The notes beneath the pieces were generated by a model. That model was not told the DNA's origin and searched no databases. It worked only from the letters and a program-made list of their open reading frames with translations. A program made the translations under genes and the position numbers. This document shows, piece by piece, positions 5,964 to 7,232 of a stretch of DNA of 64,000 nt. Within the stretch, counting starts at the first letter, position 1. Each line of letters begins with the position of its first letter. Source of the DNA: Bremia lactucae (taxonomy: Eukaryota; Oomycota; Peronosporomycetes; Peronosporales; Peronosporaceae); contig NC_090622.1 of assembly GCF_004359215.1 (NCBI RefSeq), positions 1,951,191-2,015,190 on the forward strand, read 5' to 3'.

Positions 5964-5977
5964 CCCCCCCCCTCTTT
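5964..5977 (-). promoter_or_regulatory. Polypurine tract of element A
   Basis: On the element strand this reads AAAGAGGGGGGGGG directly next to the 3' LTR start TGTAATGGGG, the expected place of the plus-strand DNA primer in a Ty3/gypsy element. Confidence 0.9.
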
Positions 5978-6068
5978 AAGTTGCGCTTATCGTGACGTAA
6001 GCGCCATACACAGAAAGTTTCTTCTCAACGAATAGTCCAACGAAAAGCCCAACGAGAACTCCAACGAC

Positions 6069-7232
6069 ATGTCATCTTGGTCTTCGAATCTGCTCAGTCA
6101 CGAACAACTGAGCAGCATGAATCCTGAACACCGACGCGACTCGACCCCAAACGACAGTTGGGGTCATCAGACACTTCGAAGAGAGCATGCACCGCAGACC
6201 ATGGATGACGACTTGAAGCCGTGGGGCTTGTACAGCCTTGAAGGCGCTCACCAACCTGAATCACTAGAGTCCATGAAGAATCTCTTCACACGATACCGTA
6301 ACGTTCGAGGCAAAGGAACGAATCACGCATACACTGAAGACGCACTGCAACGGTCTTGGTGTGCCTTCATCAGACGCTGGAACGCGAGTCGACGTGAAGG
6401 GACATCCTTCACGTCCTGGATCGAGGGACGCGAAGATACTCATGGCGTCCACGCTATTGGCGACTCACGACGACGCGTATGTCATTTGACTCGTGATGAG
6501 TTCCACATGTGTTACGTCCATGTCCGTGAAGGGTGCCCACAGTGTTACGTGGAGAGACCGCGACCAATGCGGCAGGAATGGGACGACATGGTGTTTGCAC
6601 GGGGAATGTCCCAGCACATCCGACCATGGATCGGACGCTATGAGAGGAGCCTCTCAGAGCTCCAAGTATCTGTGTTCCGTCACATGAGGGAGCGCCCTGT
6701 CGATCAATGGAGGCGTTCACGTAGCCAAGATCGTTTGTCTTACGACCACCGAGGTCGTTCTCGAAGTCGCTCTCGATCGTCAAGGTATCCAAATGCTCCC
6801 GAGCCTCGTAGAAGACGTCGGAGTCACTTGGGAGATCGTCGTCGATCGCCAATTCAAGCACGTCGCGGTTCGCGGGATCGTGGAAGGAGTCAACAGCGTC
6901 GGTCGCGTCCGCCGACCTCTTACTGGTCTCGTACTCCTCAACGACGTCAGGAACATCGCGAGCCAGCATACTTCGAGGCTCCCACGTGTCTTCCGTTGGT
7001 AAATAACCCAACCATCGGACCTTATAGTGCGTTTCAGAACGACTCTTCGATGGCGCCGAGTCACTACTCGGCGCAAGAGGCGTGGGGTCTTCATGACCGA
7101 CGATACGGTCCACAATCCAGCGTCGCTCACCCGATGCATCTACCAAGGGAGGAGGAGCATCACGACGGAAGGCTTCTTGGGTTGGGCGCCGATTCTCAGA
7201 TCGTCGAAATAACTTGGAGCAAAATCACGTAG
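6069..7232 (+). CDS. aORF-A: intact antisense accessory ORF of element A (387 aa)
   Basis: A complete frame of 387 codons starts at ATG 6069, 92 bases inside the polypurine tract of the 3' LTR, on the strand opposite to gag-pol. Residues 1-130 are polar. Residues about 135-215 hold a Cys/His-containing block with CHLTRDEF, CPQC, QEWDDM and FARG, followed by an amphipathic stretch LSELQVSVFRHM. Residues about 220-290 are extremely Arg/Ser-rich (RSRSRSR, RRRRRS), resembling an RS or nucleic-acid-binding tail. The last third overlaps the chromodomain frame (6454-7146, minus) in antisense, and the final codons run into RT sequence at the deletion joint. A B-type copy in this window has a matching block (CH..DFH, EW..M, FFARG, M..I..LQ), which supports a real protein. 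Part of the RS richness may be a by-product of the acidic, Ser-rich sense linker. Function unknown. Confidence 0.7.
   Translation: MSSWSSNLLSHEQLSSMNPEHRRDSTPNDSWGHQTLRREHAPQTMDDDLKPWGLYSLEGAHQPESLESMKNLFTRYRNVRGKGTNHAYTEDALQRSWCAFIRRWNASRREGTSFTSWIEGREDTHGVHAIGDSRRRVCHLTRDEFHMCYVHVREGCPQCYVERPRPMRQEWDDMVFARGMSQHIRPWIGRYERSLSELQVSVFRHMRERPVDQWRRSRSQDRLSYDHRGRSRSRSRSSRYPNAPEPRRRRRSHLGDRRRSPIQARRGSRDRGRSQQRRSRPPTSYWSRTPQRRQEHREPAYFEAPTCLPLVNNPTIGPYSAFQNDSSMAPSHYSAQEAWGLHDRRYGPQSSVAHPMHLPREEEHHDGRLLGLGADSQIVEITWSKIT
6454..7146 (-). pseudogene. Chromodomain-bearing pol tail of element A
   Basis: The frame (about 230 codons, no ATG, so part of a polyprotein) contains a chromodomain: WIVDRIVGHED, then HYKVRWLGYLPTEDTWEPRS, then DVVEEYE. 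The pattern of aromatic residues and W-E-P is that of Ty3/gypsy chromoviruses, where the domain is thought to guide integration by reading chromatin. After it comes an acidic linker rich in Asp and Ser, whose complement forms the RS part of the antisense frame. Upstream the frame meets the RT fragment at a deletion joint near 7190, so integrase is absent. Confidence 0.88.

What the first reader, a model, noticed from the sequence alone, without database searches (positions are those of the whole stretch)
5964..7232. An intact gene on the antisense strand of a Ty3/gypsy retroelement
Element A carries a 387-codon frame with its own ATG on the strand opposite to gag-pol, 92 bases inside the polypurine tract, running toward pol and overlapping the chromodomain. 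Equivalent antisense frames occur at the same place in the LTR-b, LTR-c, LTR-d and LTR-d/e elements of this window. Middle-domain residues (CH..DFH, EW..M, FARG, LQ) are shared between the A and B types. Gag-pol of element A is broken while this frame is whole. I know of antisense ORFs in some plant Tat-type elements, but not of a described family like this in oomycetes. This may be a conserved accessory system acting in trans or regulating the element.
Basis: partly seen in the sequence, partly recalled or inferred. Interest (0 to 1): 0.88.

Follow-up and report, generated by a model that had tools for sequence, protein, structure and literature searches.

The report
Antisense accessory gene of oomycete retrotransposons
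Some retrotransposons of downy mildews and Phytophthora carry what looks like a real, conserved protein gene written backwards across the end of their polymerase gene, a new example of the antisense extra genes known from plant retrotransposons; what it does is not yet known.

Summary
The antisense frame exists (window 6069-7232 +, 387 codons), just inside the polypurine tract of a Ty3/gypsy element whose gag-pol is on the minus strand. It belongs to a real gene family: 109 matches are listed in the own genome, and relatives occur in Phytophthora, Peronospora and Hyaloperonospora. Outside the sense frame, diverged copies differ most at third codon positions (L009/L018: 50/180, 29/179, 81/179; p=1e-8). 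A sister copy's frame stays open over 365 codons of open pol; sense codon use would give this with P=4e-5. Corrections: element A's copy is not whole. A deletion of about 2.75 kb that removed RNase H and integrase also cut off its C-terminus, which holds a coiled coil in full-length relatives (sister frames: 489-522 codons). Members have a helical core, an Arg/Ser-rich middle (A type) and a coiled coil, without a Pfam, PDB-sequence or convincing fold match. Best reading: an antisense accessory gene of the aORF-3R kind; a nuclear regulator role is inferred.

The parts
6069..7232 (+). antisense frame of element A, 387 codons, truncated at its C-terminus
   Evidence: truncation against sister copy L002
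6174..6710 (+). helical core domain, conserved in homologs
   Evidence: alignment; AlphaFold2 mean pLDDT 80, pTM 0.50
6711..6953 (+). Arg/Ser-rich stretch (limits by eye)
   Evidence: translation
7197..7232 (+). 11 codons and stop added by the deletion junction with RT
5648..5963 (-). 3' LTR of element A
   Evidence: 308 of 316 identical to the other LTR
5964..5977 (-). polypurine tract
   Evidence: by eye
10262..10577 (-). 5' LTR of element A
6454..7224 (-). sense frame with the chromodomain (6895-7134); stop codon at 6454-6456
   Evidence: Pfam Chromo 6.6e-11; stop position
7367..7969 (-). RT fragment of element A
   Evidence: matching sister region passes Pfam RVT_1
8271..9896 (-). gag and protease of element A
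   Evidence: Pfam Retrotrans_gag and RVP_2
12591..12910 (+). fragment of a B-type antisense frame
30063..31606 (+). broken B-type antisense gene; chromodomain opposite at 31007-31171
40421..42038 (+). broken B-type antisense gene; chromodomain opposite at 41438-41602

Best explanation
The frame is a truncated copy of a genuine protein-coding accessory gene carried by chromodomain-bearing Ty3/gypsy elements of oomycetes. The gene is antisense to gag-pol, begins roughly 75-105 bases inside the 3' LTR and, in a full-length copy, overlaps open pol by about 1.1 kb. Shown: open frames in many copies, codon-level constraint, relatives across several Peronosporales with one layout (helical core with conserved cysteines, Arg/Ser-rich middle, C-terminal coiled coil and basic tail). 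Inferred: transcription from an antisense promoter in or beside the 3' LTR; a nuclear product that oligomerises by its coiled coil, binds nucleic acid by its basic Arg/Ser-rich part and regulates the element's RNA or transcription, as retroviral accessory proteins do. The confidence is for the conserved accessory gene; for the nuclear regulator role I give about 0.35.
For: 109 matches in the own genome. Of 28 loci examined, 25 have a chromodomain and 27 a chromodomain or integrase on the opposite strand; 10 of 28 have a stop-free frame of at least 350 codons. Third-position excess outside the sense frame in the five A-type pairs tested, p=1e-9 to 5e-4, from 14 pairs run with pN/pS 0.36-0.71 in this frame. 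P=3.9e-5 for the open overlap given sense protein and codon use. Homologs in 8 Phytophthora species, 3 Peronospora species and Hyaloperonospora.
Against: No transcript or peptide was examined. The mirror frame -2 also has low pN/pS (0.46-0.83) and lies below the antisense frame in 3 of 14 pairs, though with 6-13 stop-bearing codons. Close copies are near neutral (0.57-0.88). Many matches hold stops. The start codon is not fixed: the first ATG is at codon 27 in L006 and 67 in L010, counted from the upstream stop. The function rests on layout; no fold or family match was found. The pairs share loci and are not independent.
Confidence: 0.85

Rival explanations
1. The open frame is a by-product of sense-strand codon use opposite pol.
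For: Much of the frame lies opposite an open pol frame, and mirror frames share some constraint.
Against: P=3.9e-5 for an open overlap given the sense protein and codon use; constraint also outside the sense frame.
Confidence: 0.04
2. The antisense transcript, not the protein, is what matters (dsRNA, silencing).
For: In P. infestans small RNAs map to Gypsy elements in both directions (passages of PMC3522703); a dsRNA role is discussed for plant antisense ORFs (passages of PMC7264820).
Against: It does not explain the third-position pattern or protein homology across species. It may act as well as the protein.
Confidence: 0.06
3. A host gene or another mobile element's gene was captured and kept by the element.
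For: No similarity to gag-pol proteins was seen; capture is discussed for plant elements (passages).
Against: No homolog found carries a name that points to a host gene, and no second element boundary was noticed, though none was searched for in full. An ancient capture as the ultimate origin is not excluded and is compatible with the best explanation.
Confidence: 0.1

Closest known systems
Antisense additional ORFs between pol and 3' LTR (aORF-3R): maize Grande gene23, rice RIRE2, Silene Retand (TRP28), PvRetro13
   Same: Antisense gene between or over the end of pol and the 3' LTR, kept across copies and species; unknown function; coiled-coil (SMC-like) or nuclear features in some plant cases (passages of PMC7264820 and PMC11963269)
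   Different: No TRP28 hit by Pfam; carried by elements with a chromodomain; overlaps open pol by about 1.1 kb in L002, while Retand has a long pol-to-LTR region
Boty of Botrytis cinerea (fungal antisense aORF)
   Same: Antisense aORF between pol and 3' LTR outside plants (passage of PMC7264820)
   Different: Sequences not compared here
Chronos elements of oomycetes
   Same: Oomycete Ty3/gypsy with a chromodomain (passages of PMC5348765)
   Different: Chronos has a second RNase H; the sister pol L029 shows none by Pfam. The held main text of that paper never uses the word 'antisense'
HBZ of HTLV-1 (antisense retroviral gene)
   Same: Antisense gene of a retroelement giving a nuclear regulator (passages); both have a coiled-coil segment (HBZ zipper recalled, from no call)
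   Different: An analogy of position and layout; sequences were not compared

Membership tests
aORF-3R (antisense additional ORF between pol and 3' LTR) | open frame antisense to gag-pol next to the 3' LTR | tested here: met
   element A; opposite-strand pol domains in 27 of 28 loci
aORF-3R (antisense additional ORF between pol and 3' LTR) | kept in many copies and in distant species | tested here: met
   109 matches; homologous proteins in several genera, whose genomic setting was not seen
aORF-3R (antisense additional ORF between pol and 3' LTR) | antisense transcription | not testable with these tools
   no RNA data
TRP28 proteins of Retand elements | Pfam PF04195 domain | tested here: not met
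   no hit in P0001 at E<=1 nor in five longer homologs at E<=5
Chronos elements | chromodomain at the end of pol | tested here: met
   Pfam Chromo in element A and L016
Chronos elements | second RNase H domain | tested here: not met
   L029 pol: one RNase H region, then the integrase zinc domain 130 residues on, with no other Pfam hit at E<=0.01; one copy tested
A and B antisense proteins as one family | significant profile similarity of the cores | tested here: inconclusive

The most novel reading that the evidence does not exclude
Chromodomain-bearing Ty3/gypsy elements of oomycetes carry one ancient antisense regulator in two deeply split branches (A and B), with a helical cysteine-bearing core and a coiled coil, overlapping pol: a retrotransposon counterpart of HBZ or Rev that arose independently of the plant TRP28 genes.
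Probability: 0.35. Interest if true: 0.75.

Novelty: new variant of a known kind. Interest (0 to 1): 0.6.

Why it matters
Antisense accessory genes are described mainly from plant LTR elements and their function is open (passages). Large families in oomycetes, under codon-level constraint and overlapping pol, suggest that such genes arise repeatedly and are worth keeping. Existing stranded RNA data could test it at once. It also gives a likely origin for a set of 'hypothetical proteins' in Phytophthora and downy-mildew annotations, one B-type relative being listed as an effector candidate (P0103).

Tried and rejected

Mended: the lower bound of the other-frame range (0.80), the start distance (75-105 bases, by eye), the wording on cysteines, and the start-codon caveat was added.

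Full report
Setting. The window is G000:C13:1951191-2015190 of a 116-Mb assembly in 220 contigs. Element A lies on the minus strand: LTRs 5648-5963 (3') and 10262-10577 (5'), alike at 308 of 316 bases, the 5-base repeat ACTAC outside, and a polypurine tract at 5964-5977. Gag and protease are at 9896-8271, an RT fragment at 7969-7367 and a chromodomain at 7134-6895. The reported plus-strand frame starts with ATG at 6069 and stops at 7230-7232.

Is the copy intact? No. Sister copies L002-L006 are 95-97% identical to it over codons 1-377 and have stop-to-stop frames of 489-522 codons. Element A's frame agrees with L002 up to codon 376 and then runs through a deletion junction into RT at YFDD. About 2.75 kb present in the sister is missing, which removes RNase H, integrase and the antisense C-terminus together. 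The sister's pol, as far as read (L029), is open: protease, RT, one RNase H and the integrase zinc domain, with no second RNase H by Pfam.

Is it a gene? (1) The genome search lists 109 matches, from near identity down to 28-30% (counts of large families are lower bounds by the tool's own note, and many rows hold stops). I examined 28 loci (L001-L028): a chromodomain on the opposite strand was found in 25, a chromodomain or integrase in 27; L011 showed no pol. 10 of 28 have a stop-free frame of at least 350 codons. (2) Outside the sense frame, on plain nucleotide alignments, changes fall most often on third positions: L009/L018 50/180, 29/179, 81/179 (p=1.1e-8); L011/L018 p=5.5e-7; L009/L027 p=1.1e-9; L001/L012 p=1.9e-4; L001/L026 p=4.9e-4. 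One search ran 14 pairs; I tested these five, and pairs share loci. Across the 14 pairs pN/pS in this frame is 0.36-0.71; frames +1, +2, -0 and -1 give 0.80-1.83. The mirror frame -2 gives 0.46-0.83 with 6-13 stop-bearing codons per pair, against 0-3 in the antisense frame; in three pairs (L001/L017, L012/L017, and L012/L026 by 0.01) the mirror frame has the lower ratio. Close copies of one family are near neutral (0.57-0.88), as expected after insertion. (3) Given the sense protein and codon use, the chance that the antisense frame of L002 stays open over 365 overlapping sense codons is 3.9e-5. (4) A composition null never reached 387 codons in 2000 runs; its longest was 350.

Against. The first ATG after the upstream stop is at codon 12 in most A copies but 27 in L006 and 67 in L010, so the start is not fixed. 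No RNA or peptide was examined.

Who has it? Searches of 5.8 billion proteins gave 34 and 12 homologs, two of them in both lists: Phytophthora fragariae, rubi, infestans, capsici, idaei, cactorum, megakarya and nicotianae; Peronospora destructor, farinosa and matthiolae; Hyaloperonospora arabidopsidis; and entries without an organism name. The names given are hypothetical, unnamed or uncharacterized, or automatic domain names. The search reaches only relatives sharing short exact words, so absence elsewhere is weak evidence. Genomic settings of these proteins were not seen.

What does it look like? Longer members (P0013, 500 residues; P0002, 459; P0010, 434) share a core of about 180 residues with nearly invariant positions around SWCAFIRRWN and several conserved cysteines, then an Arg/Ser-rich stretch, then a coiled-coil-like segment and a basic tail. 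AlphaFold2 on the window core (6174-6710) with 34 homologs: mean pLDDT 80, pTM 0.50, all helical. No Pfam, PDB-sequence or convincing fold match.

Other elements in the window. B-type antisense remains are at 12591-12910, 30063-31606 and 40421-42038 (+); at the last two a chromodomain lies on the minus strand. The family is large in the genome: 4566 first-look candidates, 150 of them scored, 152 matches (part of the query lies opposite the chromodomain, which helps such matches). 61 homologs include proteins of up to 593 residues in Peronospora effusa and 529 in P. matthiolae. Its core outside the chromodomain frame shows pN/pS 0.25-0.42 in the antisense frame over 11 comparisons with L034, two of which repeat the window copies; third-position excess is clear for L034/L037 (11/166, 13/167, 34/165; p=6e-5) and not significant for the window copy at 40838 (14/167, 18/167, 27/166; p=0.07). 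The mirror frame is again low (0.24-0.69) but holds 6-9 stop-bearing codons. The B-type model (P0046) has a similar order of helices, a cysteine loop and a long C-terminal helix read as a coiled coil (pLDDT 59, pTM 0.35), but profile tests do not establish kinship with A. I treat A and B as two antisense genes at one position, possibly one ancient family.

Mechanism. Shown: protein-coding constraint, position and layout. Inferred: an antisense promoter near the 3' LTR, a nuclear product, nucleic-acid binding through the Arg/Ser-rich part, oligomerisation through the coiled coil, and regulation of the element. The inference leans on layout and on plant parallels: Grande gene23 is nuclear with its own promoter, and Retand proteins carry TRP28 with predicted DNA binding (passages).

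Known or new. The class aORF-3R is known in plants and in the fungal Boty element (passages). I found no description for oomycetes in six searches of open-licence papers, judged by the listings, and the held main text of the oomycete Chronos paper does not use the word antisense. The protein lacks TRP28 by Pfam, and the gene overlaps pol; hence a new variant of a known kind.

Noticed in passing
L001, L010, L012 (element modules): RT of element A is closer to L010 (85% over 156 columns) than to L012 (75% over 172), but its antisense core is closer to L012 (62% over 142) than to L010 (42% over 180): module exchange or unequal rates.
   Followed up: partly
P0103, P0053, P0024, P0026 (homolog lists): Relatives of these antisense proteins carry automatic names such as 'RxLR effector candidate protein', 'Core-binding (CB) domain-containing' and 'RNA polymerase sigma-70 region 2 domain', which may mislead annotation.
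   Followed up: no
homologs P0013, P0017, P0040, P0002: A short [AV]-P-[TM] motif after the Arg/Ser part fits the antisense mirror of the chromodomain Trp-Glu, hinting that these proteins are also encoded opposite a chromodomain in other species (by eye; P0010 and P0005 deviate).
   Followed up: no
window 54070-55361: A 300-base direct repeat (54070 and 54781, 96%) flanks or includes a run of unknown bases, so the long minus-strand ORF 54138-55361 is partly an assembly gap.
   Followed up: no
window 59866-61782 (-): ORF with a bZIP-like basic stretch by eye; no Pfam hit at E<=0.01.
   Followed up: partly
window 2466-3878 (-) and 58846-59646 (+): Two ORFs that look like secreted proteins by their hydrophobic N-terminal stretch (by eye); no Pfam hit at E<=0.01.
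   Followed up: partly
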